Shown piece by piece: positions 1,206-14,718 of a DNA stretch of 64,000 bases. Position numbers and translations under genes: made by a program. The DNA is from Mesorhizobium sp. 113-3-3 (GTDB lineage: Bacteria > Pseudomonadota > Alphaproteobacteria > Rhizobiales > Rhizobiaceae): contig NZ_AP023243.1 in assembly GCF_016756495.1 (NCBI RefSeq), forward strand, positions 6,142,501-6,206,500, in the 5' to 3' direction. The notes below the pieces were generated by a model. That model was not told the DNA's origin, made no database searches, and saw only the letters and a program-made list of their open reading frames with translations. The stretch's first letter is position 1. The number at the start of each line of letters is the position of its first letter.

Positions 1206-2243
1206 TCAGCGGTGGGCCGCCACTTTGTTGGGGATGCCTTCGATGGGGCTCTCCGGCGTGCCGACAGTCTGGCGGGTCATTGCCTCGACGCGCTCGCGCG
1301 TGCCTTCCGGATCCGTGATCCACTGCTTGTAGAAATTGTACGGACATACGGCGTGCCCGCGGGTGTCGTCGCCGGAGTTGATGAGGCCGGTGTAGCCACG
1401 ATGCAGCAGCTTGAAGAGATGGTTCTGCGACTGCATGTTGCGACGTGCGTCGCGCAGCAGCGAGGTCGAAAGCTGCGCATACTGGATGCCGTTTTCCTCG
1501 GTGCCGCATTCGCCCAGCGTGCGTCCGTCGAAGCCGATGATCGCCGAATGGCCAAAATAGGAATAGACGCCGTCGAAGCCGGCCGCGTTGGCGACGGCGA
1601 CATAGACGTTGTTGGCCCAGGCCATCGACTTCGAAATCAGGATCTGCTGCTCCTTGGCCGGGTACATGTAACCCTGGCAGCGGATGATCAATTCGGCTCC
1701 GCGCATGGCGCAGTCGCGCCATATTTCCGGGTAGTTGCCGTCGTCGCAGATGATCAGGCTGATCTTCATTCCTTTCGGGCCTTCCGAGACATAGGTGCAG
1801 TCGCCGGGATACCAGCCCTCGATCGGCACCCAGGGCATGATCTTGCGATACCTCTGCACGATCTCGCCCTTATCGTTCATCAAGATCAAAGTATTGTAGG
1901 GCGCCTTGTTAGGGTGTTCCTCATGCCGCTCCCCGGTCAGCGAAAAGACGCCCCAGACCCGGGCCTTCTTGCAGGCTTCGGCGAAAATCTGGGTCTCTTC
2001 GCCGGGGATGGACGAGGCGGTCTCATACATCTCCTTCTGGTCGTACATGATGCCGTGGGTGGAATATTCGGGAAAGATGACCAGATCCATGCCCGGCAGG
2101 CCACGCTTCATCCCTTCCACCATCTCGGCGATGTTGCGGGCGTTGGCGAGCACCTCGTCGCGCGTGTGCAGGCGCGGCATCTTGTAGTTGACGACGGCAA
2201 CACCGACCGTGTCTTTGCTGCTCGAAATATCGCCGTGATACAT
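1206..2243 (-). CDS. amiE: Aliphatic amidase
   Basis: 345-residue nitrilase-superfamily amidase that hydrolyses short-chain aliphatic amides (acetamide, propionamide) to the acid and ammonia in the cytoplasm. The catalytic residues fall at the positions known for Pseudomonas AmiE: Glu59 (FPEY), Lys134 (YRKIMPW), Glu142 (PIEGW) and Cys166 (IICDDGN). The length also matches the family. The start has a strong AGGAGGAGT ribosome site. It directly follows the ABC transporter genes, so imported amide would be hydrolysed at once. The related formamidase AmiF is an alternative, but length and context favour AmiE. Confidence 0.93.
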
Positions 2244-2276: not shown

Positions 2277-2969
2277 CTAGACAACCAGATGCTGGTGGAT
2301 CATCTCGTCGCTGAGCTGGCCGATCGGGCCACTGACAGCGACGCTGCCGCGATTGAGAATGGCGAAACGCTGCGACGCGCGGCGGGCAAAGGCGATGTTC
2401 TGCTCGACAAGCACGATCGTGAGCCCGCGCGTACGATTGAGGTCGATCAGCACGTTCTCGATCTGCTCGACGATGTTGGGCTGGATGCCTTCCGTCGGCT
2501 CGTCGAGCAGCATGATCTTGGGATCTGACAGCAGGGCGCGCGCAATGGCGAGTTGCTGCTGCTGGCCGCCGGACAGGTTGCCGCCGCGGCGACCAAGGAA
2601 TTCCTTGAGGATCGGGAAAAGCTCGAGCACCCATTCCGCGATCCGCCCGCCGCCTTTGGCGGCGAACGTTCCCACCATGAGGTTTTCCCGCACCGTGAAG
2701 CCAGGCAGGATGCCGCGCCCTTGCGGCACGTAGCCGATACCGGCCAGCGCGCGCTTGTGCGTGGGTTGGTCGACCAGTTCCTCGCCGTCGAGTCGTATCG
2801 AACCGGTCGTGCGGCTCATCAAGCCGAGGATCGTGCGCAGCAGTGTCGTCTTGCCGACGCCGTTGCGGCCCAGCACGGAAAAGAAATCGCCCGCGCCGAC
2901 GTTCAGCGACACCGACTGCAGCGCACGGCTGCGACCATAGAAGCCATCGACATTGGCAAGCTCAAGCAT
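2277..2969 (-). CDS. Branched-chain amino acid/urea/amide ABC transporter ATPase (UrtE/LivF-type)
   Basis: 230-residue ABC ATPase of the LivF/UrtE group. Walker A GRNGVGKT lies at about residues 34-41, signature LSGGQQQQ in the middle, and Walker B MLLDEPTEG follows. The ATG at 2969 is preferred over one at 3002: GGGAGGAATCGGC precedes it and it overlaps the upstream ATPase stop by 8 bp, giving tight coupling. It forms the second nucleotide-binding subunit of the importer encoded by the five genes between 2277 and 7061. With AmiE downstream, the substrate is most likely a short-chain amide or urea (compare FmdDEF of methylotrophs). Confidence 0.88.
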   Translation of the reverse strand: MLELANVDGFYGRSRALQSVSLNVGAGDFFSVLGRNGVGKTTLLRTILGLMSRTTGSIRLDGEELVDQPTHKRALAGIGYVPQGRGILPGFTVRENLMVGTFAAKGGGRIAEWVLELFPILKEFLGRRGGNLSGGQQQQLAIARALLSDPKIMLLDEPTEGIQPNIVEQIENVLIDLNRTRGLTIVLVEQNIAFARRASQRFAILNRGSVAVSGPIGQLSDEMIHQHLVV

Positions 2970-3717
2970 GGCCGATTCCTCCCGAGCCGAGATAGGCGTC
3001 ACGCACGGCTTGGTTGGATTCGACCTCGGCGATCGTTCCTTCGGCGAGCAGCTTGCCCTGATGCATGACTGAGATGGTCTGCGCGATGTCGCGCACGAAG
3101 CCCATGTCGTGCTCGACCACGATCAGCGTGTGCTTGCCGCGTAGCCGGCAGAAGAGGTCGGCAGTCTTCTTCGTCTCCTGCTGAGTCATGCCGGCGGTCG
3201 GCTCATCCATCAGGATGAGCAAAGGATCCTGCGCCAGGATGAGTGCGATCTCGAGCCACTGGGTCTGTCCGTGCGACAGATGCGCGGCCGGCGTCGCCAG
3301 TTCCTCCTCGAGGCCGACAAGCTCGGCCAGCCGTTCGATTTCGGCCTTGTCACCACCCTGGCCGAAACTGAACAGATTCGCCAGAACGCCCGGCCTGCTC
3401 GAGCGACCGATATGCAAATTGTCGCGCACGCTGAGATCGCGAAATACGCTCGGCACCTGGAACTTGCGACCGATGCCGGTGCGGGCGATGGCGTGCTCGC
3501 TGAGGCGATGGATGGGCTTGTCGCGGAAGTACACCGCACCCGCCGCCAGCCGGGTCTTGCCGCAGATCAGATCCAGCGCCGTCGTCTTGCCGGCACCGTT
3601 CGGCCCTATGAGGCAGCGCAGCTCGCCCTTCGCCACGCGCAGCGTCAAGTCCGACACGGCGACGAAGCCGCTGAAGGTGACACGCGCCTGGTCGATCAGA
3701 AGCTGGGCCTCGGTCAT
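2962..3717 (-). CDS. Amide/urea-type ABC transporter ATPase (UrtD/LivG-type)
   Basis: 251-residue ABC ATPase with Walker A GPNGAGKT, an LSHGQTQWLEI signature and Walker B LLILMDEPTAGM. The signature Ser-His-Gly variant is typical of the UrtD/LivG subgroup rather than the canonical LSGGQ. Its ATG overlaps the stop of the upstream permease by 4 bp (ATGA), and its own stop is overlapped by the next ATPase gene, so both ATPases are made together. First nucleotide-binding subunit of the importer. Confidence 0.88.
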   Translation of the reverse strand: MTEAQLLIDQARVTFSGFVAVSDLTLRVAKGELRCLIGPNGAGKTTALDLICGKTRLAAGAVYFRDKPIHRLSEHAIARTGIGRKFQVPSVFRDLSVRDNLHIGRSSRPGVLANLFSFGQGGDKAEIERLAELVGLEEELATPAAHLSHGQTQWLEIALILAQDPLLILMDEPTAGMTQQETKKTADLFCRLRGKHTLIVVEHDMGFVRDIAQTISVMHQGKLLAEGTIAEVESNQAVRDAYLGSGGIGHA

Positions 3718-4841
3718 GACAGGCTCTCCAGATGGCGGGGATTGCTTTCCACGTCCTTGCGCTCCGGCTGTTCGGTGGTTGCTAAGCGCTTGCGCTCGAA
3801 GCGGCCTCCGATTGCCTCCAGAGCGCCGGCGATGCCTTTCGGCAGGAACAGCACGACAAGGACAAAGAGCAGGCCCATGACGAGCGTCCAGCTGTCGAGG
3901 AAAGTCTCCGATTCGGACAGCGCGCCTTGCATACCGGCCACGACGAGCGCGCCGACCATGGCACCGACCAGGCTCTGGCGGCCGCCAACGGCAACCCAGA
4001 TGACGACGGAGAGGGAAAGCGGCACACCCATGAAGGTCGGCGAGGCGAACTCCATGACGATCGTGTAGAGCATGCCGGCGAGGCCGGCGATGGCGCCTGA
4101 GACGGCGAAAATGAACATCTTGTAGAACGCGACGTCATAGCCGAAGAAGCGGACGCGATCTTCCTGATCGCGAATTGCTTGCACGATGAGGCCGGCTTTG
4201 CTCTTGGTCACCGCCAGGGCAATGAACAGCGAGGCTGTCAGGCAGATCGCAACGAGGTAATAGCTCGCCGAGCCATAGGCATCGAAGGCAAAACCGGCGA
4301 CATCGAACTGGGCCAGATCGGTGATGCCGTTGAAGCCGCCTGTGTAGGCCTGCTGATCGATGATGACGAGTTGCACCACGACCATGGCGGCCAGCGTGAT
4401 GATGGCGGCATAGACCCCGGTGACGCGGCCACGGAACATGAACCAGCCGAGAAGTGTCGCGAACAGCACCGGCACGACAATGCCGGCCGCCACGCCAAAG
4501 CTCATCGAATAGAAGGGCTTCCAGAACCACGGCAGTTCCGGAACATTGTTCCAGACCATGAAATCGGGCAGCCCGTCCGGACCGGTATGGACGGGGATGG
4601 TCTTCAGTTTCAGCGCCATTGCCATGCAATAGGAACCGAGGCCGAAGGTGGTGGCCTGGCCGAGGTTAAGGATACCGGCGTAGCCCCAGGAAAGGCTCAG
4701 CGCGATGGCGAGCATGCCGAGCACGAGATAGCGCGCGTATTTGTTGAGCAGGAACGCGTCGTCGAGGAAGACGGGCACGACCAGGATCGCCAGGCATACC
4801 AGCGCGCAGATCGCGATTTCTGTTTTTGTCTTGCCGGACAC
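3714..4841 (-). CDS. Amide/urea-type ABC transporter permease (UrtC/LivM-type)
   Basis: 375-residue multi-spanning inner-membrane permease of the LivM/UrtC family, with hydrophobic segments throughout and the family motif NLGQATTFGLG near residue 60. The start codon is GTG, preceded by AGGGA; no better ATG is available before the first membrane segment. The C-terminal tail is charged and cytoplasmic-like. It pairs with the UrtB-type permease just upstream to form the translocation pore. Confidence 0.87.
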   Translation of the reverse strand: MSGKTKTEIAICALVCLAILVVPVFLDDAFLLNKYARYLVLGMLAIALSLSWGYAGILNLGQATTFGLGSYCMAMALKLKTIPVHTGPDGLPDFMVWNNVPELPWFWKPFYSMSFGVAAGIVVPVLFATLLGWFMFRGRVTGVYAAIITLAAMVVVQLVIIDQQAYTGGFNGITDLAQFDVAGFAFDAYGSASYYLVAICLTASLFIALAVTKSKAGLIVQAIRDQEDRVRFFGYDVAFYKMFIFAVSGAIAGLAGMLYTIVMEFASPTFMGVPLSLSVVIWVAVGGRQSLVGAMVGALVVAGMQGALSESETFLDSWTLVMGLLFVLVVLFLPKGIAGALEAIGGRFERKRLATTEQPERKDVESNPRHLESLS

Positions 4842-4874
4842 TATGCTGTTTCCCTGGTTCTGATCGGTAACGGT

Positions 4875-5744
4875 TCAGGTCCGCACGCGCGCGGTGAAGA
4901 GACCTTGCGGCCGGAAGCGGATGAGGACGACTATGGCGAGCAGGACGAGCGCCTTGGCGATCGTGTCGTTGGAGTAGAAGGCGAGGTAGCCGGAGAGCTC
5001 GCCAAGAATGCCGGAGCTTGCCAGCGTTCCCATCAGGCTTTGCGTGCCGCCGAGAACGACGACCATGAAGGCATCGACGACATAGCCGGTGCCCATCTCG
5101 GGTGAGACGCTCTTCAGCGGCGAGACCAGCGCGCCGGCCAGACCGGCAATACCCGCCCCGTAAGCGAAGGTCAGCCGATAGATACGGCCGGCGTTGATGC
5201 CGCAGCTCGAGGCGACGGAGCGGTTCTGGGTAATGGCCCTGAGCTTCAGACCGAAATTGGTGTAGCGGTAGATCCCCCAGGTCAAGCCGAACAGCGCAAG
5301 CGACACAAGCAGTATGAAAAGGCGATAGGCCGAGTCCGTCGCGCCGAGGATGGTGACACTTTTCGAAAGAGACTCCGGCATCTGCACGTAGCGAAGCTCG
5401 CCGCCCACGGCCAGGCGCACCGCTTGCTGCGCGATCACGCCAATGCCCCATGTCGCCAGGATGGTATCGAGCAGCCGGTCGTAGAGCCGGCTGATGACCA
5501 GCACTTCCACCAACCAGCCGACGGCAGCCATGATGATGAAGATCGGCAGCAGGCTGGCGATCAACCCCATGCCGAACTGGGTCTGCAGGGCCCAGGCGGC
5601 ATAGGCGCCGAGCATCACGAACTCGCCATGCGCGAGATTGATGACGCCCGTGACGCCGTAGATGATGGCGAGGCCGAGCGCCACCAGCATCAGGATCGAT
5701 GCGATGCTGAGGCCGGTCATGAGCTGCGATACGAGGATGTCCAT
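4875..5744 (-). CDS. Amide/urea-type ABC transporter permease (UrtB/LivH-type)
   Basis: 289-residue membrane protein of the LivH/UrtB permease family. The motif GVTGVINLAHGEFVMLGAY near residues 30-48 is diagnostic. It has about eight hydrophobic segments and a short basic C-terminus. Start ATG with AAAGGCG upstream. It lies between the periplasmic binding protein gene and the second permease, the standard order SBP-permease-permease-ATPase-ATPase. Confidence 0.88.
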   Translation of the reverse strand: MDILVSQLMTGLSIASILMLVALGLAIIYGVTGVINLAHGEFVMLGAYAAWALQTQFGMGLIASLLPIFIIMAAVGWLVEVLVISRLYDRLLDTILATWGIGVIAQQAVRLAVGGELRYVQMPESLSKSVTILGATDSAYRLFILLVSLALFGLTWGIYRYTNFGLKLRAITQNRSVASSCGINAGRIYRLTFAYGAGIAGLAGALVSPLKSVSPEMGTGYVVDAFMVVVLGGTQSLMGTLASSGILGELSGYLAFYSNDTIAKALVLLAIVVLIRFRPQGLFTARVRT

Positions 5745-5813: not shown

Positions 5814-7061
5814 TCAGATCTGCTTGAGGCCTTCGGCCGTGCACTTCTGGTTCGGGTAGGCCTTGTAAGGCACCGGCTCCAGCCAGTCGGCGGACTGCTT
5901 CAGGATCTTGAACTGGCCGTCGGCCTGGCATTGGCCGATCTTCGGCCACAGCCAGGTGTGGAGGTTCTCCGGCTCGATGCGGACCTTGCCTTGCGGCGCC
6001 ACCATTTCCTGGCCCTTCACAGCCTCGCGGATGGTGTTGGGCGTGATATCGCTGCCTGCCAGCTTCTCCACCGCTTGCTTGAACAGGTGGACCTGGAAGT
6101 AGGACGGTTCGGAGACGAAGTGCGTGACCTTGTCGGCGCCCCAGCGCTTCTTGTAGGCGTCGACGAATTTGTGGTTCTCGGGCGAGTCCCACACCATGAA
6201 ATACGGCGCGGAGGTGAAGTGGCCCGCCGCCGCCTCGCCGCCCATCGCCGCCACTTCGTTTTCGGAGGTGGTGAGGCTGGCCATCGGCATGGTTGCGGGA
6301 TCGAGGCCTGCGGCATGGTACTGGCGGTGCAGGGCAACGACGGAGTCGCCGACGACTGTCGAGAAGATGACGTTCGGCTTTTCGGCCTTCAGCTTGTTGA
6401 TGACGGAAGAGAATTCCGAATGGCCAAGCGGAACATATTCCTCCGCCACGACCTCGGCGCCAAGCTCGGCCAGCAGCTTCTTGCAGTAATTGTTCTCTTC
6501 CTTCGGATAGATGTAGTTCGACCCGATCAGGTACCAGCGCTTGCCGAACGTCTTGACCAGCCAGGGAACGAAATCATCCTGCTGCTGATTGGGCACCGCA
6601 CCGGTATAGATGACGTTCTTCGAGCACTCGCGGCCCTCATAAAGCGTCGGGTACCAATAGAGGTTGTTCTGCTTCTCGAACACCGGCAGTACGGCCTTGC
6701 GGCTGGCCGACGTATAGGAGCCGAACACCGAAACGCATTTGTCGGACAGCACCAGCTTGCGCGCCTTCTCGGCAAAGGTGGCCGGGTCGGACGCCGGGTC
6801 CTCGACCACTGGTACGATCTGCATGCCGTTGATGCCGCCGGCGGCATTGATCTCCTCGATGGCCATGATCGTCGCCTTGTTCAGCGATTCCTCGATGATG
6901 GCGGTCGTGCCGGTCAGCGAGAAAAGCACGCCGACCTTGATCTGGCCGTCGGCCGCGCGTGCCAGTGAAGCATTCTTGTTCCAGATATGCGGGAATCCAA
7001 CGAGAGACACTGTGCCGAGCGCGGCGGTGGCCTTCAGAAAACTGCGACGGTCCTTGTTCAT
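5814..7061 (-). CDS. Periplasmic substrate-binding protein of the amide/urea ABC importer (UrtA/FmdD-type)
   Basis: 415-residue type-1 periplasmic binding protein. The N-terminus has a twin-arginine signal (DRRSFLK followed by a hydrophobic stretch and ARA), so it is probably exported folded by Tat. The mature part closely resembles the cytoplasmic sensor AmiC encoded at 7973-9208 (shared LYWYPTLYEG / LWYPTLYEG and YIYP motifs), implying both bind the same or similar ligands. GGGGAG precedes the ATG. The gene is the first of the transporter-amidase run and is preceded by a terminator-bearing leader at 7081-7180. Confidence 0.9.
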   Translation of the reverse strand: MNKDRRSFLKATAALGTVSLVGFPHIWNKNASLARAADGQIKVGVLFSLTGTTAIIEESLNKATIMAIEEINAAGGINGMQIVPVVEDPASDPATFAEKARKLVLSDKCVSVFGSYTSASRKAVLPVFEKQNNLYWYPTLYEGRECSKNVIYTGAVPNQQQDDFVPWLVKTFGKRWYLIGSNYIYPKEENNYCKKLLAELGAEVVAEEYVPLGHSEFSSVINKLKAEKPNVIFSTVVGDSVVALHRQYHAAGLDPATMPMASLTTSENEVAAMGGEAAAGHFTSAPYFMVWDSPENHKFVDAYKKRWGADKVTHFVSEPSYFQVHLFKQAVEKLAGSDITPNTIREAVKGQEMVAPQGKVRIEPENLHTWLWPKIGQCQADGQFKILKQSADWLEPVPYKAYPNQKCTAEGLKQI

Positions 7062-7080
7062 TTTTTCTCCCCTGAAAATG

Positions 7081-7127
7081 AAAAAAGGCCTCGAAGCGAT
7101 CCGCCGGAGGCAGATCGTTTCGAGGCC
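7081..7127 (-). terminator. Leader terminator hairpin upstream of the importer operon
   Basis: On the minus strand an inverted repeat of 15 bp arms (7087-7101 and 7113-7127, one G-U/A-C type mismatch) with a short inner GCC/GGC pairing is followed directly by six T residues (7086-7081). This is a textbook intrinsic terminator, yet it lies after the amiR stop and only 20 bp before the start of the binding-protein gene. It would therefore stop transcription into the transporter and amidase genes unless antiterminated. AmiR encoded just upstream is an ANTAR antiterminator, which explains its presence. Confidence 0.85.
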
Positions 7128-7180
7128 TCATTGCCTTTGATGTGCGCGGCTGGACGCCGCTCGCGAACCCTGTCGTTCGC
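7123..7180 (-). promoter_or_regulatory. Candidate ANTAR (AmiR) antitermination element, leader 1
   Basis: On the minus strand, stem GCGAAC / GTTCGC with a 6-nt loop occupies 7180-7163. A 4-bp stem AGGC / GCCT with hexaloop AATGAG occupies 7136-7123; its 3' arm is the beginning of the terminator 5' arm, so the two structures exclude each other. The second loop carries A at position 1 and G at position 4, as described for ANTAR target loops; the first loop (GACAGG) does not fit that rule. A GCGGC/GCCGC pentaloop hairpin lies between them. The layout is seen; AmiR binding is inferred. Confidence 0.6.
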
Positions 7181-7272
7181 AACAAAAAACCCCACGTTCC
7201 GCTTCCGCGAATGCCGTGAGGTTCCGTTACCTGTATTTCGCCAGCGGCATCGTTGCCGCCAATTCAAAAACG

Positions 7273-7947
7273 CTAGCTGAGAAGATCGTGCGAGTCAACA
7301 ATGGCATTGGCAACGGCGCCGATCGTGACGCGTCGCTCCATCGCTTGCCGGCGAAGATAGTTATAGGCCTCTTCCTCAGTGATGTTCTTCACGCGCATCA
7401 ACACCGACTTTGCCCGCTCCACACTACGCATCGTACGCAGGCTCTCGTCGAGCTTGTCGATACGGCCGCGCAGGCGGCGCTCGTAGAGGAAATGGCTTCG
7501 CGCGAGTGATAGCACGGCCTGGACCGACCGCGCCGTGGTGGGATAGTGCAACACGCCATGCGCTGCGCAGTTGTGCAGAAGCTGCAGATCGAGCGGACCG
7601 TCGCCGCGGTCCACAACGACAAGCGCGGCGCCCGGCTCACCCGGTATCCAGGGCAGCCTCTGCGGCAGGTCCGCCGACAGAGCGCAGAAGACAGCATCGC
7701 AGTGCGCCGGTATCTGCGGTGGCATTGGCCATTCGTGGTGAATCTGGCAGCGCAGCCTTTGCAGCTCGCGTATCAGGCGCTCGCCATCATCGTCGCGCTC
7801 GACGACGACGGCGACCTTGAGATCCCAAAGCGACTTGGCCGCGGGGGATGCGACTGTCTGGGCGTAGACGCCGCCTTCTTTTCGCTGCGGCCCGCCCTGC
7901 CCCGACTTGTCGCGACTAATGTTCATCATGTCGACGGTTTCTTGCAT
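7273..7947 (-). CDS. amiR: ANTAR-domain antitermination regulator
   Basis: 224-residue protein with a degenerate receiver-like domain (about residues 40-150, no phosphorylation Asp pattern), a coiled coil (RRLRGRIDKLDESL) and a C-terminal ANTAR RNA-binding domain ending in ITEEEAYNYLRRQAMERR. In Pseudomonas, AmiR is held inactive by AmiC and, on amide binding to AmiC, prevents termination in the amiE leader. Here amiC lies 25 bp upstream in the same direction, and a terminator leader lies right after the gene. GGGAGGACC precedes the ATG. Confidence 0.88.
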   Translation of the reverse strand: MQETVDMMNISRDKSGQGGPQRKEGGVYAQTVASPAAKSLWDLKVAVVVERDDDGERLIRELQRLRCQIHHEWPMPPQIPAHCDAVFCALSADLPQRLPWIPGEPGAALVVVDRGDGPLDLQLLHNCAAHGVLHYPTTARSVQAVLSLARSHFLYERRLRGRIDKLDESLRTMRSVERAKSVLMRVKNITEEEAYNYLRRQAMERRVTIGAVANAIVDSHDLLS

Positions 7948-7972
7948 GATGGTCCTCCCTTGCTGCCGTCGG

Positions 7973-9208
7973 TCAGGTCAGTTCAAGCGTTTGCTGGCGA
8001 AGGCTTCGGCCGTACCCCAGCAAATAAGGGTCGGACAGAACACAGCTCTGCGATTCATAGACGAGGTCGAACTGGCCCTTTCTGTTGGCACGACCGATGC
8101 GCGTCCACAGATCCGCGTGGCCCCAGAGCGGGTTGATGACGACATCGCCTTGCGGCGCTTCGAACTCGGAGCCCATCACCGACGCCCGCAGAATCTCGGT
8201 ATCCATGGAGTCCGTCTGTTCGAGGGTCTTGGCGAAAACATTGACCTGGAAGTACGAGGCCTCCAGGCACATGTTGGTTGGCTCATCATCGCCATAGCGC
8301 TTCTGATAATGGCGCACGAAGGTCGAGTTGCGCTCGCTGCCAACGCCCTGGAAATAGGGAGCGGCGGTGATGTGGCCTTCGCCGACATCATGGCCCATGG
8401 CGCGGATCTCGGCCTCTGTCGTGGTCAGGCTGGCGATCGGCATCACCTTCGGATTGAGTCCGAGATCGGCATAGGCCTGGTAGAGATAGACAGTGCCGTC
8501 CCCGACCACGGTCGAAAAAATGACGTCAGGCTGAGCGCGTTTGACGTCGCGCATGACCGGCAGGAAATCGGCGCGCTTGGCGCCCATGCCTATATAGGAT
8601 TCGCCGATTACGCTGCCGCCGCTGTTGCGGATCAACTCACGCATGATGCGATTGGATTCGCGCGGATAGATGTAGTCCGAGCCGATGAAGTAGAAGCGCG
8701 TGCCATAGGTCTGCATGAGCACGCGACAGAGCTCCACGCTGTTCTGGTTGGGCGTGGCGCCGGTGTAGATGACATTGGGAGAAAACTCGAAACCCTCATA
8801 AAGGGTTGGGTACCAAAGTAGACCATTGAGCCGTTCGACAACAGGCAGCACGGCCTTACGGCTGCTCGACGTGTAGCAGCCGAATATCGTGCTGACGCCG
8901 TCCTCCACCATAAGTCGCTTGGCGTAGCGGCCGAAGGCGCTGGCCTGCGAACCCGGATCGTAGCAGATCGGCTCGATCGGTCTGCCGTTCACGCCACCTG
9001 CGTCGTTTATTTCCTCGATCGCCGTCAGCGTGCCCCGCAACTGCGTTTCCTCGATGAGGGCCATGAAGCCCGAGCGGGAAAAGAGGACCCCGACGCGCCA
9101 AGGTTCGGAGGTATTGCTCGATCTGGTCAATCTACGCTCCCATGGTTCCCCAACATCATCCCGTGTCCCCAACGTCGTTTTTCTGATTGTGCGGACGCGG
9201 CCGCCCAT
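7973..9208 (-). CDS. amiC: AmiC-type cytoplasmic amide sensor
   Basis: Up to 411 residues, homologous to periplasmic amide/urea binding proteins but with no signal peptide: the N-terminus is polar and Arg-rich. This fits AmiC, the cytosolic ligand-responsive negative regulator of AmiR. The ATG at 9208 sits inside a GC-rich hairpin (9196-9226), so the real start may be further in, near the SNTSEPW segment where homology to binding proteins begins. The pair amiC-amiR lies between the two leader regions that it probably controls. Confidence 0.85.
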   Translation of the reverse strand: MGGRVRTIRKTTLGTRDDVGEPWERRLTRSSNTSEPWRVGVLFSRSGFMALIEETQLRGTLTAIEEINDAGGVNGRPIEPICYDPGSQASAFGRYAKRLMVEDGVSTIFGCYTSSSRKAVLPVVERLNGLLWYPTLYEGFEFSPNVIYTGATPNQNSVELCRVLMQTYGTRFYFIGSDYIYPRESNRIMRELIRNSGGSVIGESYIGMGAKRADFLPVMRDVKRAQPDVIFSTVVGDGTVYLYQAYADLGLNPKVMPIASLTTTEAEIRAMGHDVGEGHITAAPYFQGVGSERNSTFVRHYQKRYGDDEPTNMCLEASYFQVNVFAKTLEQTDSMDTEILRASVMGSEFEAPQGDVVINPLWGHADLWTRIGRANRKGQFDLVYESQSCVLSDPYLLGYGRSLRQQTLELT

Positions 9209-9226
9209 ATCCTGCGGGCGGCCGCG
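9196..9226 (-). repeat. GC-rich hairpin between hydrolase and amiC genes
   Basis: Perfect 11-bp arms (9196-9206 and 9216-9226) around a 9-nt loop. No T run follows on either strand, so it is not a clear intrinsic terminator. It may damp transcription or stabilise the upstream mRNA, and it overlaps the first possible amiC start codon. Confidence 0.55.
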
Positions 9227-9233
9227 ATCGCGG

Positions 9234-10250
9234 TCAACCGGCCAGCAATTCCTTCAGTTTTCCGTCGAGGAACTTGACATCCTTGGGGCTGGTGCCTGGG
9301 CCGCCGGCGAAATGACCCCAGACGGATTCGATCGGAATGAATTTCGCATTGGGCATGTTGGCGACCTCCATCTCGCTGTCTTCCGGTGGGAAATAAAGAT
9401 CGGTACGACAGGGCATGACATAGGCTTTCGGCTTGATGGCGCCGAGCGCCTTCTTGAAATCGCCATGATAGACTTCGTTGTCGGAGATATCGCCGTTCTG
9501 CCAGGTCCATAGCATGGCAAGCAGATTGTTGGCATCGCGCGCCAGGAAATGTCCCTCCCAGAAGGCAACCAGGAAATCCTCCAGGCTGGAAAAGCCGAGA
9601 TCCTTGAGATCGAGCTCCTGACGATAGAACGCTTGCGAGAAACCCCAGCCGGCATAGACGCGGCCGGCGGCACGCAGACCGCGGGTCGGGCGCGTGTCGT
9701 ACCAACCTTCAGCCCACGTCCCGTCGGCGGTGAGCGCTGCCTTGACGCCCTCCAGAAAGACGAAGTTGTGACGCGAGCATTTGGCCGAGCCGCAGAACGG
9801 CGCGATGAGGTCGATCATATCGGGATAGAGTGCGCCCCACTGGAAGGACTGCAAGCCGCCCATGGACCAGCCGACCACCATCCTGATCTTCTTGATGCCG
9901 AACTTCTCGGTGATGAGCCGGTGCTGTGCGCGCACGTTGTCGTAGATAGTGATCTTGGGAAAGCGCGGTCCGTTGTAAGGTTCGGGCGTATTGCTCGGCG
10001 AGGATGACAGGCCGTTGCCGAACATGTTCGGGATGATGATGAAGTATTTGGCCGGATCGAGGGCCATGCCCTTGCCGATCAGCCATTCATTGTCCTGTTG
10101 CTGACCTGAATACCAGGTCGGATAAACAATGACATTGTCCTTCTTGGCATTGAGCTTCCCGAAGGTTTTGTAGGCAAGCTTGGCGCCGCGCAAGGTGGCT
10201 CCACGCTGGAATTTGAAATCGCCAAGGTCGAAGATCTCGTGGTCTGCCAT
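9234..10250 (-). CDS. Alpha/beta hydrolase of the homoserine O-acetyltransferase (MetX)-like family
   Basis: 338-residue alpha/beta-fold protein. The nucleophile Ser129 sits in VGWSMGG, with Asp284 (CRTDLY) and His313 (WGHFAGG) completing a triad. The overall pattern resembles MetX-like acyltransferases, but the amide-utilisation setting suggests hydrolysis or acyl transfer on an amide, ester or nitrile-derived compound rather than methionine synthesis. The ATG at 10250 follows AAAGAGAG; a longer reading to 10424 would overlap the permease gene and adds no conserved sequence. Its true substrate cannot be told from sequence. Confidence 0.75.
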   Translation of the reverse strand: MADHEIFDLGDFKFQRGATLRGAKLAYKTFGKLNAKKDNVIVYPTWYSGQQQDNEWLIGKGMALDPAKYFIIIPNMFGNGLSSSPSNTPEPYNGPRFPKITIYDNVRAQHRLITEKFGIKKIRMVVGWSMGGLQSFQWGALYPDMIDLIAPFCGSAKCSRHNFVFLEGVKAALTADGTWAEGWYDTRPTRGLRAAGRVYAGWGFSQAFYRQELDLKDLGFSSLEDFLVAFWEGHFLARDANNLLAMLWTWQNGDISDNEVYHGDFKKALGAIKPKAYVMPCRTDLYFPPEDSEMEVANMPNAKFIPIESVWGHFAGGPGTSPKDVKFLDGKLKELLAG

Positions 10251-10311
10251 TTTGGTTTCACTCTCTTTGCGTATGGGGCGGGACCGCCGGAACGCTCCCG
10301 CCCGGGTCAAT

Positions 10312-11625
10312 TCAAGCTGCGGCGCGCACGGTCTGCGGCTGCCGACCGATGACTGCATAGGCGATACCGCCGGCCAGCATGGCGCTGATGGCAGTCGAGA
10401 AATGCGGCGCATAGAACTCGACAATCAGTGCGACGGCCGATCCAATTGCCCAGGCGATGAAGGCGTTTGGCCGCCAGTCTTCGCTGATCTCGGCGTTCTT
10501 GCGGTAAAGGTACTGGTCGACCAAGACGATGGCGCCGATCGGTGGCACCACGACGCCGAGCAGCGACAGCCACTGGATGAAGAAAGCCCAGACATTGCCG
10601 GCGGCAACGATGATGCCGATGACGCCCAGCACCACGGCCATGACGCGCATGCGTGTATGCAGAATGCGCGACCAACCCGTTGCCGAATTGTAGAGGCAAT
10701 GCGCGCAGACCGAGCCGAGATTGCAGTAGAGGAACAGGAAAGCCAGCGCGCTAAGCCAACCGATCTGCCGCCCGTTCATGTAGCCGAAGATGTTGTCGGC
10801 GCCGAACGGATTGGCGTTGGGCACGGCGAGGGCTGCGGTCATCACGCCACCGACCAGCATCGCCAAGACGTTGGCGAACGGAAAGGCTGAAAAGGTCGCG
10901 ATGATGGAACTGCGGGAGTCCTTCGCCCAACGGTTGAAGTCGGCAGTGACGGTGCCGGCATCGATGAAAAGCGCGATGACGACGGTGAGGCCGATGCCCA
11001 TCGTCATGCTCGCGGCACCGTTGTTGCCCGGATAGTTCAGGATGGCAGTCCATCCTGACGTTGCCGCGGCATCCAGCGCAACCCAACCGCCGAGGATCAC
11101 GAACAACGGAACCGACACCAGGCCGATGAGATGCAGGCCGCGCACGCCGATGAAGGTGATGCCGATATAGAGCAGTCCTGCGACGGTGGTCATGGCGACG
11201 TAGTTCAGCCCATAGGTCGAACTGATGAGGGCGCCGGTGATGCCGGTTTGAACGGCATACCAGCCGAGCAGCAACGTCGACAGCAGGCCGGAGGCGAAGA
11301 CATAGCCCTTCTTGCCGAAGACAATGGAGGCAAGAAGCGCAAAGTTCATGCCGCGCCGTGTGCCCAGAACGCCGAGCGCGCCGACATAGGCAAACATGAT
11401 GAGGTTGCCGATGATCATGGACCAAAGCGCATTTCGGAACCCCATGCCGAGCACGAGGATGGATCCGGTCATGGCGCCGGTGATGATCATCGGGAAGCCG
11501 ATCCAAACGGTCGTCACAGAAAAAGTGCTTCGCCTGGCCGAAGCGGGAACGGGTTCGTGCTCGTATTCGTCGCCGAGGACGTGGTCGACTTCATCGAGCT
11601 TGTCGATGTCCGAGGTTTTCGTCAT
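10312..11625 (-). CDS. NCS1-family permease (cytosine/purine/thiamine/allantoin type)
   Basis: 437-residue inner-membrane transporter with about twelve hydrophobic segments and NCS1-type motifs (GFRNALWSMIIGN; FNRWAKDSR). Members import nucleobases, allantoin, hydantoins and related amides with a cation. The ATG at 11625 has GGAGG 5 nt upstream; an ATG six codons earlier lies within that ribosome site. It heads the amide cluster and is preceded by a long leader with a terminator-like hairpin (11840-11879), so it is likely co-regulated by AmiR. A nitrogen-rich amide substrate is inferred from context. Confidence 0.82.
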   Translation of the reverse strand: MTKTSDIDKLDEVDHVLGDEYEHEPVPASARRSTFSVTTVWIGFPMIITGAMTGSILVLGMGFRNALWSMIIGNLIMFAYVGALGVLGTRRGMNFALLASIVFGKKGYVFASGLLSTLLLGWYAVQTGITGALISSTYGLNYVAMTTVAGLLYIGITFIGVRGLHLIGLVSVPLFVILGGWVALDAAATSGWTAILNYPGNNGAASMTMGIGLTVVIALFIDAGTVTADFNRWAKDSRSSIIATFSAFPFANVLAMLVGGVMTAALAVPNANPFGADNIFGYMNGRQIGWLSALAFLFLYCNLGSVCAHCLYNSATGWSRILHTRMRVMAVVLGVIGIIVAAGNVWAFFIQWLSLLGVVVPPIGAIVLVDQYLYRKNAEISEDWRPNAFIAWAIGSAVALIVEFYAPHFSTAISAMLAGGIAYAVIGRQPQTVRAAA

Positions 11626-11839
11626 TGCACCCTCCTGGGTCAATCGCGTTGCGTGGAGGCCCGTCGTCGCGATGAGACGCCCTTGTCCGTGCCCGCGCTT
11701 CCTCGGTTAAGTGCCTTTGGCCATGAATTCGGAAACGGATCGCAGCAGGCTTATATGCCTTCCGCGCCTCTCCCCATTGTTCTGGCCAACCGGCGCCTGT
11801 TCCCCTTGGCTTCTCGGTCGGTATCGCACAAACGACAAA

Positions 11840-11917
11840 GGCCTCCCGATGGCTCCTGAAGCGGAGACAAAGGGAGGCCCTTTTGCCTTGATCTGAAACG
11901 GTGGCCTCGTTGCCACC
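11840..11917 (-). promoter_or_regulatory. Candidate ANTAR antitermination leader 2, upstream of the NCS1 permease
   Basis: On the minus strand, stem GGTGGC / GCCACC with hexaloop AACGAG occupies 11917-11900 (A at loop position 1, G at position 4). An 11-nt linker leads to AGGC / GCCT with a 6-nt loop AAAAGG at 11888-11875. The 3' arm of that hairpin begins the 5' arm of a larger hairpin (GGCCTCCC / GGGAGGCC, 11879-11840), followed by TTTGTCGTTTG. The design repeats leader 1 at 7081-7180, including the same AGGC/GCCT overlap. The trailing T run is interrupted, so the terminator is weaker. Confidence 0.6.
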
Positions 11918-12230
11918 TGCCTGCTCAACAGGCAAAACAAAAGCTACAGGCACTGCGGTTTCAAGTCAAATGCTATGTCCGGCGTGCCCGAATTGCTGCC
12001 GGAGCAAGCACATAGCGTTGGCCCGAAGCATAGTTCGACCTGGGCCATTCAGTGTCGGAGATGCAAGGGAGTTGGAGATGCAGGGGACTGGGCGAGGCGT
12101 TGTGCGCGGCAGGCCGCTCCACGAGCAGCGATCCGCAATTCGTCAGCCACAGCAACAACCCCTCGCCCTGAGGTTGGGCCGTCAAAACCGCTCGAACGGT
12201 CGCCGGTTCCTCTCCTGACTGAGCGGAGAC
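11918..12230. other. Intergenic region upstream of leader 2
   Basis: About 310 bp between the P450 gene end and leader 2; both flanking genes are on the minus strand. It must hold the promoter for the permease transcript, but no clear -35/-10, sigma-54 or operator sequence was recognised. Small readings on either strand have no family resemblance. A GCCTG/CAGGC hairpin lies at about 11919-11933. Confidence 0.4.
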
Positions 12231-13502
12231 CTAAACACCGAAAACAGGCATCCGGACATGCGATGAGGGTCGGTAGGAAACCCTTTCCTCAAGGCCTTCG
12301 CAAACGATGCCTCGATCAAGCAGATGGCTCAGGGCGATCTCGGTGATCGTCGTCGCGAGTACGGCGCTAGGGCAGGCATGCACGCCGGCGCCGAACTCCA
12401 GGTATCGTCTGTGGTCGCGAAATATATCAAAGCTATCCGGATCAGGGTTGATTGCCGGATCGCGGCTGGCCGCCGCCAGGGTTACGATGATCATGTCATT
12501 GGCCTGCATCTCTTGCCCAGCGACGAAGCCATCGCGGGCCACGAAGCGAAGGGTACTGTGTGTTATCGGATCGAACCGTAGCACCTCCTGAATGGCCAGC
12601 CCAAGCACGGCGCGATCGCGGCGGGCAGCCGCCAATACATCGGGATGGCGTGCCAACGCGATAAGGGTCGAGCCGATCAGGGCGGAGGTTCCGGCAAAGC
12701 CTTGCGCCATCAGCCCTATGCCGTTGGCGATCACCAAATCCGCATCCAGCCGGTTTGAACAGGCCGCTTGGCGCGACAGCATGGCAAACAGCGAGCAATC
12801 ATCAACGCGCAGGGCTTCCACCATGCTGCGAAACAGATCGAGCAGCTTGGCCGAACTGTCAGCGCCGGCTTGTAAAATGGCAGCGGTGAGCGTCGGAACA
12901 CCCGTAACCGCTGCCGTTGCCGCCGCGCCGTAGTCGCCCATCCAGCGTGAGACGTCCGAAAAGCTGTCGGCCGGAATTCCTAGCAGACTCATGATGACCT
13001 GTGCCGGCAAGGCAGAAACAAACTGGTTCAGCCGCTCGCCGCCGCTCTCCGGCATGATGGTTGCCGCCAGGTCCTTCGCCAGATCAGCCGTGAGATCTGC
13101 GATACGCCGTTCGCTCAAGCCTTCGAACGTAGCCGTCACCGCGCTTTTCAACGGACAATGAATTTCTCCATCATTCATCCGCACGAGGCGGCTGAAAATC
13201 TCGGCGACAGGCGTACCGATGAGCGGCTCGGGCACCCGGTTGACCGCCGGCCTCGTCAGACAAAGCGGGCTGGTCAGCACGGCGTTCACCGCTGCCGCGC
13301 TGACGACGACCCAAGCCTCGCCCGGCCCCTCTCGATAAATCGGCGCGCCAGAAAGCAGACGAGAATAGAAGGGATAGGGGTTGGCGTGTGCCGGCGCCGC
13401 CCGCACGTGAAGCGGTTCATCGGCGCCGCTCGGCATGAACTCGCCCAGACCTGTAGCGCTGGGCGCCTTGGATGTATCAGCATCGTCCTGCGGATTCGCC
13501 AA
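12231..13502 (-). CDS. Cytochrome P450 (atypical heme-binding loop)
   Basis: 423 residues. The ExxR motif is EVLR and the heme-ligand loop is FGAGVHACPS with Cys377. The Gly normally two residues after the Cys (CxG) is Ser here, an uncommon change. The I-helix region GFAGTS retains the AGT pattern. The start is TTG, preceded by AGGAG 7 nt upstream and lying one base after the stop of the upstream lyase gene, so translation is coupled. A monooxygenase or other heme-thiolate reaction is likely. Substrate unknown; partner genes point to an amino-acid-derived, possibly sulfur-containing compound. No ferredoxin partner is nearby. Confidence 0.85.
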   Translation of the reverse strand: MANPQDDADTSKAPSATGLGEFMPSGADEPLHVRAAPAHANPYPFYSRLLSGAPIYREGPGEAWVVVSAAAVNAVLTSPLCLTRPAVNRVPEPLIGTPVAEIFSRLVRMNDGEIHCPLKSAVTATFEGLSERRIADLTADLAKDLAATIMPESGGERLNQFVSALPAQVIMSLLGIPADSFSDVSRWMGDYGAAATAAVTGVPTLTAAILQAGADSSAKLLDLFRSMVEALRVDDCSLFAMLSRQAACSNRLDADLVIANGIGLMAQGFAGTSALIGSTLIALARHPDVLAAARRDRAVLGLAIQEVLRFDPITHSTLRFVARDGFVAGQEMQANDMIIVTLAAASRDPAINPDPDSFDIFRDHRRYLEFGAGVHACPSAVLATTITEIALSHLLDRGIVCEGLEERVSYRPSSHVRMPVFGV

Positions 13503-13503
13503 G

Positions 13504-14718
13504 TCAGATCTCCTTCACAAAAACCGATTGATCAATGCCGGGTTGGCCTGCGCGTGTTGCCGCTCTCAATCCACGCACCAAATCCTGCTTGAGGTCTTCG
13601 ATGTCCTCGAGGCCTATTTGCAAACGGATCAGCGCCCCCTTTAAAGCGCCGGAAGCGACGGTCCGATCCGCGAGATCGACCTGCATGGCGAGGCTGCCAT
13701 AGCCACCCCAGGAAAAGCCCAGGCCGAATATCGTCAGCGCATCGAGAAATGCATGCGCCTGCGGATCGCCTTCGAGAACAATCGAGAAGACCCCGCTCGC
13801 ACCGGAGAAATCGCGCTTCCAGATGGCATGGTCGGGATGGCTCGGAAGGGCGGGATGGCGCACACCCGCAATGCCGGGCTGATGCTCGAGCCACGACGCG
13901 ATTTCGATCGCGCTCTTCTGGTGGTGGGCGAGCCGCACCCCCATCGTGCGCAGACCACGCAGAACTTGATATGTGTCATTGGGCGCGGCGGGAATTCCGA
14001 GCGCCAGGAACATCGCCCAGAGCCTTGGCCAGGTTGCGGCATTCGCTGAGGCCGTGCCAAGCAACAGGTCGGAATGGCCAGCGGGATATTTCGTCGCCGC
14101 ATGGATCGAGATATCGACGCCATGGTCGAGCGGCCGGAAGAACAGCGGTGTCGCCCAGGTGTTGTCCATCATCACGACAGCGTTGCCCGTGTGAGCGCCT
14201 CTGGCGATCGCGGGAATGTCCTGCACTTCAAACGTGTTGGAGGCCGGAGACTCGGTGAAGACGACTTTGCTGTTTGATTTCAAAAGCCGTTTGATGCCGG
14301 CACCAATGCGCGGCTCATAATACTCGACCTCTATCCCCATGCGGCTCAACACGGTATCCGCGAGTTGGCGGGTCGGTGCATAGACGGAATCGGTGATCAG
14401 CACGTGATCACCGGCCGAAAGAAAAGCCAGCAGCGATAGGGCGACGGCCGCCTGACCCGACGGGACCAGGACCGTGCCGGCCGAACCTTCCAACGCATCG
14501 ATGGCATGGCAAAGTGCCTCGGTGGTTGGGGTTCCGTGTGTTGCATAGATGTACTTCTGGCCCCGCTCCGCCATCGTTCGAGCATTGGGGAAAAGCACGG
14601 TCGATGCATGCACCACGGGCGGATTGACGAACCCGAAATAGTCACTTGGCTCGTAACCGATACGCGCCAGCCGCGTGTTCATGCCCGTCTGTGTCGGACT
14701 CTTTCCGTCGGGCATCAT
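13504..14718 (-). CDS. Cys/Met-metabolism PLP-dependent enzyme (cystathionine beta-lyase-like)
   Basis: 404-residue fold-type I PLP enzyme of the cystathionine gamma-synthase / beta-lyase family. The PLP lysine is in ATKYPAGHSD, and MMDNTWATPLFF supplies the cofactor-binding Asp. Family members perform beta- or gamma-elimination on sulfur amino acids. The start at 14718 (or 14715) follows GAGAG; an upstream ATG at 14796 would overlap the binding-protein gene. It sits between an amino-acid binding protein gene and the P450 in one operon, so it probably processes an imported or internal amino acid for the P450. Confidence 0.85.
   Translation of the reverse strand: MMPDGKSPTQTGMNTRLARIGYEPSDYFGFVNPPVVHASTVLFPNARTMAERGQKYIYATHGTPTTEALCHAIDALEGSAGTVLVPSGQAAVALSLLAFLSAGDHVLITDSVYAPTRQLADTVLSRMGIEVEYYEPRIGAGIKRLLKSNSKVVFTESPASNTFEVQDIPAIARGAHTGNAVVMMDNTWATPLFFRPLDHGVDISIHAATKYPAGHSDLLLGTASANAATWPRLWAMFLALGIPAAPNDTYQVLRGLRTMGVRLAHHQKSAIEIASWLEHQPGIAGVRHPALPSHPDHAIWKRDFSGASGVFSIVLEGDPQAHAFLDALTIFGLGFSWGGYGSLAMQVDLADRTVASGALKGALIRLQIGLEDIEDLKQDLVRGLRAATRAGQPGIDQSVFVKEI

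What the first reader, a model, noticed from the sequence alone, without database searches (positions are those of the whole stretch)
7081..11917. Two matching antitermination leaders bracketing amiC-amiR
Leader 1 (7081-7180, before the importer/amidase genes) and leader 2 (11840-11917, before the NCS1 permease) share one design: a 6-bp stem with hexaloop, then AGGC/GCCT with a 6-nt loop whose 3' arm is the start of a terminator's 5' arm. The AmiC/AmiR pair lies between them. Loop A1/G4 residues expected for ANTAR targets occur in one loop of each leader, but not both. In Pseudomonas only one such leader is known for amiE; two leaders under one AmiR, one on a permease, would be a new layout.
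Basis: partly seen in the sequence, partly recalled or inferred. Interest (0 to 1): 0.72.

Follow-up and report, generated by a model that had tools for sequence, protein, structure and literature searches.

The report
Three AmiR antiterminators, two in series
A soil bacterium's amide-uptake gene cluster appears to be controlled by three versions of a known RNA switch, two of them one after the other on the same message, and the promoter driving that pair seems to be hidden in the last codons of the gene for the switch's own regulator.

Summary
Partly right, and the real layout is richer. Leader 2 (here U) is correctly drawn. The best element was missed: D1 (7264-7181), P1 12 nt after the amiR stop, both hexaloops A1/G4, P2 running into a terminator. 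A covariance model built only from D1 orthologues picks out, in 64 kb, only U and D2 (26.6 and 26.2 bits; next 9.2). Over 38 loci D1 occurs in 37, a serial D2 in 32, U in 30. D1's hairpins and U's P1 covary; U's P2 and D2's hairpins do not, but D2's terminator does. TTGAC-N16-18-TA precedes every U and 36 of 37 D1, no D2; at D1 it lies in the last amiR codons. Codon usage supports this promoter, but a strict sigma-70 scan found none.

Best model: AmiC-AmiR opens one terminator on its own operon (positive feedback) and two in series before the importer-amidase operon. No binding or expression was tested; U and D2 miss the strict A1/G4 rule. Multi-leader ANTAR regulons are known: a new variant of a known kind.

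The parts
11941..11969 (-). Putative promoter Pu: TTGACT (11969-11964), 17 nt, TAGCTT (11946-11941)
   Evidence: Sequence; TTGAC[AT]-N16-18-TA precedes U in all 29 U-bearing loci other than L059, which has TTGACG. The strict sigma-70 consensus scan did not report it.
11918..11934 (-). Extra 5' hairpin TGCCTG-TTGAG-CAGGCA ahead of P1 of U
   Evidence: Sequence; similar 5' hairpins by eye in several other U leaders.
11840..11917 (-).
   Evidence: R1 (not trained on U) 26.6 bits, E 9.5e-5; in the 27-row alignment P1 covaries, P2 does not; folding z -4.4.
10312..11643 (-). NCS1-family permease
   Evidence: PF02133 E 3e-17; cytosine permease model 197 bits, below its cut-off of 326.
9234..10250 (-). 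MetX-like alpha/beta hydrolase
   Evidence: PRK07581 549.7 bits, cut-off 332.
7973..9208 (-). AmiC-like amide sensor
   Evidence: P. aeruginosa AmiC 1pea E 1.3e-84, second only to 8tg1, an extracellular ligand-binding receptor, E 8.7e-89; PF13433.
7273..7947 (-). AmiR-type antiterminator (pseudo-receiver + ANTAR)
   Evidence: PF21332 and PF03861; AmiR 1qo0_D E 2e-13.
7270..7298 (-). Putative promoter Pd inside the amiR 3' end: TTGACT (7298-7293), 17 nt, TAGCGT (7275-7270); the amiR stop TAG is the first half of the -10 box
   Evidence: TTGAC[AT] at this spacing before D1 in 37 of 37 D1-bearing loci, with a -10 beginning TA in 36; codon bias and displaced-amiR loci; background 70 matches in 1.51 Mb. 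Not reported by the strict scan.
7181..7264 (-).
   Evidence: covariation; 92 bits with R1 by construction; folding z -3.5.
7163..7180 (-).
   Evidence: By eye in window, L035-L037, L052, L056, L096 only; loop G1/A4; not used by the model.
7081..7160 (-).
   Evidence: R1 (not trained on D2) 26.2 bits, E 1.2e-4; terminator covaries; P1/P2 stems nearly invariant; folding z -5.6.
5814..7061 (-). UrtA-like substrate-binding protein, first gene of the D1-D2 controlled operon
   Evidence: TIGR03407 424 bits, below its cut-off of 492.75.
2277..5744 (-). Urt-type ABC importer genes (urtB-, urtC-, urtD-, urtE-like)
   Evidence: TIGR03409, 03408, 03411, 03410, all above cut-off.
1206..2243 (-). Aliphatic amidase (amiE-like), last gene of the conserved cluster
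   Evidence: NF009802 aliphatic amidase 713.8 bits, cut-off 427.

Best explanation
U, D1 and D2 are three AmiR-responsive transcription antiterminators that work like the ANTAR dual-hexaloop kind (D1 canonical, U and D2 variant). Without amide, AmiC holds AmiR and each leader folds into an intrinsic terminator. With amide, AmiR is released, binds P1 and then P2, and P2 (whose 3' arm is the start of the terminator's 5' arm) blocks the terminator. U gates its own promoter Pu and the operon NCS1-hydrolase-amiC-amiR, which gives positive feedback on amiCR. D1 and D2 gate in series a second promoter, Pd, embedded in the last codons of amiR, and the importer-amidase operon, so that leakage falls as the product of two read-through probabilities and induction steepens. 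Shown from sequence: the elements, their conservation, covariation of D1's hairpins and of U's P1, the terminator/P2 overlap. Inferred: the promoters, AmiR binding, amide as signal, feedback and the serial gate.
For: A model built only from D1 finds U and D2 in the window and nothing else below E 1.8. In 38 loci it gives 105 matches at E <= 0.5: 37 D1 (its training set), 32 D2, 30 U, 5 further ones in L059 and 1 stray in L056. Covariation: D1 P1+P2 96.9% of cells paired, 42 cells changed on both sides against 14.9 in shuffles; D1 P1+terminator 37 against 10.1, 13 of the 37 in the terminator helix; U P1+P2 18 against 5.1, all 18 in P1; D2 P1+terminator 17 against 3.0, 16 of them in the terminator helix. 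P1 loop G4 in 37/37 D1, 27/27 U and 22/23 D2 hexaloops; closing C-G in all 92 aligned P1 rows. AmiR and AmiC match the P. aeruginosa pair. The alignment with EutV, with a two-residue numbering shift that I worked out by hand, puts E191, Y195 and M203 at EutV E160, Y164 and M172, whose alanine mutants lose RNA binding strongly (PMC8934654, passages); all three are invariant in 12 orthologues. TTGAC-N16-18-TA precedes all 30 U and 36 of 37 D1 (L063 has AATAGT), and none of the 32 D2. At the -35 position 35 of 35 overlapping loci use NTT for Ile/Val, against 120 of 851 Ile/Val codons elsewhere in amiR (37 loci), and have TAG/TAA stops; L052 and L056, where amiR has moved away, use ATC and TGA yet keep the promoter in intergenic DNA.
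Against: No binding, termination or expression data. U's P2 has A rather than G at loop position 4 in 18 of 27 rows, the window included, and G4 was reported obligatory for EutV (PMC8934654, passage). U's P2 shows no change on both sides and 6 of 25 distinct rows break one of its pairs; two of U's five measures do not exceed shuffles clearly (pairs changed on both sides 63/500, further pair types 472/500). D2's P1 has a 5-nt loop here and in four relatives, and A1 in only 5 of 23 hexaloops; its P1/P2 stems hardly vary, so covariation says nothing about them. The strict sigma-70 scan found no promoter in the region. D1's P2 is closed by U-A or U-G in 28 of 37 rows, not C-G. By the same hand mapping, AmiR has Met, Glu and Thr where EutV has the RNA-contacting R142, N173 and R177. 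U was not found in 6 loci where it could be looked for (L052, L056, L060, L063, L064, L066). Shuffle controls do not correct for relatedness of the loci.
Confidence: 0.77

Rival explanations
1. D1 and U are AmiR antiterminators, but D2 is not a working AmiR target: it is a decaying copy, a plain second terminator, or the target of another ANTAR protein of the genome.
For: D2's P1 is a pentaloop in the window, L035, L036, L037 and L048, mostly G1 elsewhere; P2 has A4 in 8 of 28 rows. The genome has three other ANTAR-domain matches, one in a second AmiC-AmiR pair.
Against: D2 is kept in 32 of 37 loci; its P1 and P2 stems are unbroken in 28 of 28 aligned rows and P1 G4 is in 22 of 23 hexaloops. 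In L059 a serial pair sits before an amidase far from amiR.
Confidence: 0.28
2. D1 is simply the terminator of the amiCR operon and D2 the only attenuator of the importer operon.
For: D1's P1 starts 12 nt after the amiR stop, where an operon terminator would be expected.
Against: D1 has the best dual hexaloop of the three (both loops A1/G4), covarying P1 and P2, and a promoter-like sequence before it that is kept even where amiR has moved away (L052, L056).
Confidence: 0.06
3. The short terminated leader RNAs also act as decoys that sequester AmiR, as EutX does for EutV, so the number of elements tunes free AmiR rather than serial read-through.
For: Precedent mentioned in PMC8934654 (passage); in that paper each single hexaloop can be bound by EutV.
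Against: All three elements are cis leaders with terminators overlapping P2. No free-standing copy better than E 0.07 turned up among the 150 candidates scored in the genome, which is not a full search.
Confidence: 0.12

Closest known systems
Pseudomonas aeruginosa amiE leader with AmiC-AmiR
   Same: Homologous sensor and regulator (1pea, 1qo0), aliphatic amidase in the controlled operon, dual hairpin overlapping a terminator (PMC3369936, passages).
   Different: There a leader upstream of amiE is described; here three elements, two in series, one before the operon that holds amiCR, and a putative promoter inside amiR. The P. aeruginosa leader itself was not compared here.
Enterococcus faecalis eut locus with EutV
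   Same: Dual-hexaloop antiterminators, several (four in the locus, plus ef0120) under one ANTAR protein (PMC3369931 section 10; PMC3369936 passages).
   Different: Phosphorylated two-component regulator; the four eut sites lie upstream of four different genes, not two in a row before one gene.
Desulfotomaculum acetoxidans ANTAR regulon
   Same: 13 predicted attenuators in six transcription units, so more than one per unit (PMC3369931 section 10).
   Different: Prediction only, other genes; whether any are directly serial was not stated in the text read.
NasT regulon of Bradyrhizobium diazoefficiens
   Same: One ANTAR protein with hairpin leaders at several operons in a relative of the same order (PMC6759348, passages).
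   Different: Nitrate-sensing NasS-NasT; no serial leaders in the passages read, and most NasT-dependent genes there lacked a clear hairpin.
Tandem attenuators of Salmonella mgtCBR
   Same: Two attenuators in one leader (PMC3641672, search listing and start of abstract only).
   Different: Controlled by translation of short ORFs, no ANTAR protein named in what was seen.

Membership tests
ANTAR dual-hexaloop target RNA | Two hairpins, each stem at least 3 bp, with six-base loops: D1 and U | tested here: met
   Window D1 and U, and 37/37 D1 and 27/27 U aligned rows for loop length; L045 and L055 were left out of the U rows because P1's loop is 5 or 7 nt.
ANTAR dual-hexaloop target RNA | Two hairpins with six-base loops: D2 | tested here: not met
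   P1 loop is 5 nt in the window and 4 others; six in 23 of 28 rows.
ANTAR dual-hexaloop target RNA | A at position 1 and G at position 4 of both loops: D1 | tested here: met
   Window D1. Rows: P1 A1 35/37, G4 37/37; P2 A1 27/37, G4 35/37.
ANTAR dual-hexaloop target RNA | A at position 1 and G at position 4 of both loops: U and D2 | tested here: not met
   Window U P2 is AAAAGG (A4); U P2 G4 in 9/27 rows. Window D2 P1 is a pentaloop; D2 P1 A1 5/23, G4 22/23; P2 A1 17/28, G4 20/28. So U and D2 are described as working like the family, not filed as strict members.
ANTAR dual-hexaloop target RNA | Linker of about 5-12 nt between the hairpins | tested here: met
   D1 10, U 11, D2 9 nt in the window, counted on the sequence; range 5-12 for E. 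faecalis eut from PMC3369931 (passage).
ANTAR dual-hexaloop target RNA | 3' arm of P2 is part of an intrinsic terminator | tested here: met
   All three: terminator fold -32.6, -46.7 and -42.3 kcal/mol for D1, D2 and U against -14.5, -15.5 and -16.3 for the hairpin-pair stretch alone (shorter stretches, so not a comparison of one RNA).
ANTAR dual-hexaloop target RNA | Bound by an ANTAR protein and antiterminates | not testable with these tools
   Needs in-vitro binding/transcription or reporters.
AmiC-AmiR amide-sensing system | Regulator with AmiR pseudo-receiver and ANTAR domain | tested here: met
   PF21332 and PF03861 above cut-off; 1qo0_D aligned over residues 38-217.
AmiC-AmiR amide-sensing system | AmiC-like sensor beside it | tested here: met
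   1pea E 1.3e-84; an amiC match in all 38 loci.
AmiC-AmiR amide-sensing system | Amide binding by AmiC releases AmiR | not testable with these tools
   Inferred from homology only; ligand not tested.

The most novel reading that the evidence does not exclude
D1 and D2 work as one two-stage device: AmiR recruited at D1 is handed on, or kept at high local concentration, to open D2. D2's own recruitment hairpin can therefore decay (G1 loops, then pentaloop) while its P2 and terminator are kept. This would be serial ANTAR antitermination with memory of the first step, driven by a promoter built into the regulator's stop codon.
Probability: 0.15. Interest if true: 0.68.

Novelty: new variant of a known kind. 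Interest (0 to 1): 0.5.

Why it matters
It gives a naturally varied set (38 loci plus plasmid relatives) of ANTAR-type switches, most with two on one transcript. That makes it directly testable whether serial attenuators lower leakage or sharpen induction, whether G4 is really obligatory in the second hairpin for AmiR-type proteins (A4 is common here), and whether one bound antiterminator can be handed from one site to the next. The promoter overlapping the regulator's last codons and stop is a compact, testable layout.

Tried and rejected
Rfam gave no ANTAR family: nothing at gathering threshold in the window, only chance-level matches at E up to 10 in 6500-12500. A D1-only terminator reading was rejected on covariation and promoter placement. 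A recent D1/D2 duplication was tested: cores are 0.68 identical within a locus and 0.66 between loci, against 0.73-0.74 for the same position across loci, so the pair looks old. Other targets in the genome: with R2 (trained on these loci, so its three top hits are by construction) only one further match below E 0.1. In both genome scans only 150 of about 5,600 first-look candidates were scored, and with R1 U and D2 were not among the listed matches, so these scans can miss elements. The strict promoter scan found none, which counts against the promoters.

Rows dropped before counts: U alignment A5 has 27 of the 30 loci with a U hit; L045 and L055 were left out because P1's loop is 5 or 7 nt by eye, L065 because of a weak P2. 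D2 alignment A6 has 28 of the 37 D1 loci; left out are L042, L052, L056, L061, L063, L066, L067, L068 (irregular or absent hairpins by eye or script) and L054 (my script's search range missed it; by eye it looks regular). L059 was left out of the D1 alignment A3. Dropping irregular rows flatters the loop counts for U and D2.
Full report
WHERE IT IS. The window is G000:C1:6142501-6206500 of a 7.7 Mb genome. Its genus is inferred to be Mesorhizobium, because an unnamed same-genus genome (G039) shares a contig of identical length with M. plurifarium STM8773. On the minus strand the order is: NCS1 permease (11643-10312), MetX-like hydrolase (10250-9234), AmiC (9208-7973), AmiR (7947-7273), UrtA-like binding protein, urtB/C/D/E-like importer genes and an aliphatic amidase (2243-1206). 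AmiC matches P. aeruginosa AmiC (E 1.3e-84) and AmiR matches P. aeruginosa AmiR over residues 38-217 (E 2e-13).

Leader 2 (here U) is as described. In leader 1 (here D2) the P2 and terminator are as described, but P1 is not the 6-bp hairpin at 7180-7163. A scan for paired hexaloops with A1/G4 in both loops gave 3 pairs in 64 kb, of which one, 7260-7219, is followed by a terminator by eye.

IS IT MORE THAN CHANCE. I took 34 named loci encoding relatives of this AmiR, 3 stretches from unnamed same-genus genomes and the window: 38 loci. D1 was aligned from 37 (A3; L059 left out). The antiterminator pairs are 96.9% formed, with 42 cells changed on both sides (shuffled mean 14.9) and a covariation score of 0.393 against 0.212; sliding the partners by 1-3 columns destroys this. 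P1 plus terminator gives 37 against 10.1, 13 of them in the terminator helix. The shuffles do not correct for relatedness. Model R1 was built from D1 alone. On the window it gives D1 (92 bits, by construction), U (26.6 bits, E 9.5e-5) and D2 (26.2 bits, E 1.2e-4); the next match has 9.2 bits, E 1.8. For D2 it pairs GCGGC with GCCGC at 7160-7146. Calibration is short, so E-values are rough.

CONSERVATION. R1 over the 38 loci gives 105 matches at E <= 0.5. By position: D1 in 37 loci; a second same-strand element D2 behind it in 32 (29 at E <= 0.05; not found in L056, L061, L066, L067, L068); U in 30. U was not found in L052, L056, L060, L063, L064 and L066; in L061 and L062 too little DNA is held upstream of amiC to tell. 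The remaining six matches are five more in L059 and one stray in L056. In 16 of the 38 loci NCS1-hydrolase stands before amiC and U stands before NCS1; in nine (L046-L051, L053, L054, L058) NCS1-hydrolase stands after the amidase and U is directly before amiC; in the other 13 no such NCS1 gene was seen in the held stretch. Where present, U therefore stays at the head of the unit that holds amiCR. Among four plasmid relatives, Roseibium (L128), R. etli (L129) and Ciceribacter (L131, unannotated) show three elements at the corresponding places, and A. tumefaciens MWF001 (L130) shows elements before amiC, after amiR and one more at 13980 (model R2, trained on the 38 loci but not on these).

THE HAIRPINS. 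P1 loop position 4 is G in 37/37 D1, 27/27 U and 22/23 six-base D2 loops, and P1 is closed by C-G in all aligned rows, as in the NasR SELEX motif (PMC7496416, passages). P2 is freer. D1 P2 has G4 in 35/37 but is closed by U-A or U-G in 28. U P2 is closed by C-G in 27/27 but has A4 in 18. D2 P2 is closed by C-G in 28/28 and has A4 in 8. D2 P1 has a 5-nt loop in five rows, the window among them, and A1 in only 5 of 23. U's P1 covaries (18 cells changed on both sides) but its P2 has no such change, breaks one pair in 6 of 25 distinct rows, and two of the five measures do not clearly exceed shuffles. D2's P1 and P2 stems are nearly invariant and so uninformative, but its terminator covaries. The strict ANTAR definition (A1 and G4 in both loops) is met by D1 but not by U or D2 in this window; I therefore call U and D2 variant elements that work like the family.

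PROMOTERS. Upstream of each of the 29 U outside L059 and of all 37 D1 the script found TTGAC[AT], 16-18 nt and a -10-like hexamer; this begins TA in all but L063 (D1, AATAGT) and ends in T in all but L098 (U), L043 and L045 (D1). The U of L059 has TTGACG-N18-TATTCT. None of the 32 D2 has such a pair. The full pattern TTGAC[AT]-N16-18-TANNNT occurs 70 times in 1.51 Mb of both strands of these loci; 62 of the U and D1 sites listed fit it. For D1 in the window the -35 box lies in the amiR codons for Val-Asp-Ser and the -10 box begins with the amiR stop codon. To separate codon from promoter constraint: in the 35 loci where they overlap, the Ile/Val codon is NTT in 35 of 35, against 120 of 851 Ile/Val codons elsewhere in amiR (37 loci), and the stop is TAG or TAA in all 35 (in L063 it lies further on and not in the -10 box); in L052 and L056, where amiR ends further upstream, the codon is ATC and the stop TGA, yet TTGACT-N17-TAGC[GT]T is still there in front of D1. 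The loci are related, so the simple probability (1.7e-30) overstates the case. A strict sigma-70 scan reported no promoter in 6900-12400; the two -10 boxes in the window match TATAAT in only 3 of 6 positions. The promoters are inferred.

MECHANISM. Each leader folds into its terminator by default (-32.6, -46.7 and -42.3 kcal/mol for D1, D2 and U). By the ANTAR model (PMC3369931; successive binding of P1 then P2 in PMC8934654, passages) released AmiR would hold P2 and prevent termination. Residues E191, Y195 and M203 of this AmiR align with EutV E160, Y164 and M172, but Met, Glu and Thr stand where EutV has R142, N173 and R177 (mapped by hand; roles). U sits at the head of the unit that includes amiC and amiR (gaps 61, 25 and 25 nt by coordinates), so AmiR would raise its own level. 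D1 and D2 lie in a row with 20 nt between the end of D1's region (7181) and D2's P1 (7160), and only D1 has a promoter-like sequence, so RNA polymerase from Pd must pass both. The effect (lower leak, steeper response) is inference. In L059 a serial pair stands before an amidase gene more than 5 kb from amiR, so the pair can go with the amidase rather than with the amiR end.

GENERALITY. R2 on 44 loci with more distant AmiR relatives (one genome place appears twice, L025/L080) found a same-strand element downstream of amiR in 30 at E <= 0.02 (in L074 about 540 nt away, in the others nearer), and no locus with two same-strand elements (about 1.5 kb flanks only). A leader behind amiR looks common in this order; the serial pair looks particular to this AmiR group, within that sensitivity.

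KNOWN OR NEW. Multi-leader ANTAR regulons are known (PMC3369931 section 10 read whole; PMC6759348 passages). Tandem attenuators of another kind are known (PMC3641672, listing only). Searches combining ANTAR or AmiR with hexaloop, EutV, amidase, tandem, Rhizobi, amiE leader, Mesorhizobium or stop codon showed, among the papers listed (in 75, 90 and 91 only part of those found) and by title and start of abstract, none on serial ANTAR leaders, on an amiR-embedded promoter or on these rhizobial loci; the library is open-access only. Verdict: a new variant of a known kind.

Noticed in passing
L132 (G000:C1:732000-751000), 10980-10902 minus strand: A second AmiC-AmiR pair elsewhere in the same genome, next to an OppC-like permease gene, has a weak R2 match (24.5 bits, E 0.07 genome-wide) at the start of its amiC; by eye the second hairpin is unclear.
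   Followed up: partly
L059 3656-14071 (Rhizobium subbaraonis): Six ANTAR-like elements in one cluster: a serial pair before a stand-alone amidase, one divergent upstream of genes that include a FecCD-type permease, one before amiC, one after amiR, one before a CbtA cobalt transporter subunit gene.
   Followed up: partly
L130 8591-14069 (Agrobacterium tumefaciens MWF001 plasmid): The same AmiCR elements stand beside CobW, CbtB/CbtA, DUF6925 and a tubulin-like gene instead of the importer, suggesting a cobalt-linked branch of this regulon.
   Followed up: partly
window 7180-7163, minus strand: Hairpin GCGAAC-GACAGG-GTTCGC between D1's U-tract and D2's P1, with an unchanged stem by eye in L035-L037, L052, L056 and L096 but not seen in the other loci; role unknown.
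   Followed up: no
L018-L034 and L069-L095, downstream of amiR: Single ANTAR-like elements behind more distant AmiR genes in 30 of 44 loci.
   Followed up: partly
window 16824-12231, minus strand: Upstream of U on the same strand lie PEP-mutase-like, solute-binding, Cys/Met-metabolism PLP enzyme and P450 genes, which had no match in the other 37 held stretches.
   Followed up: no
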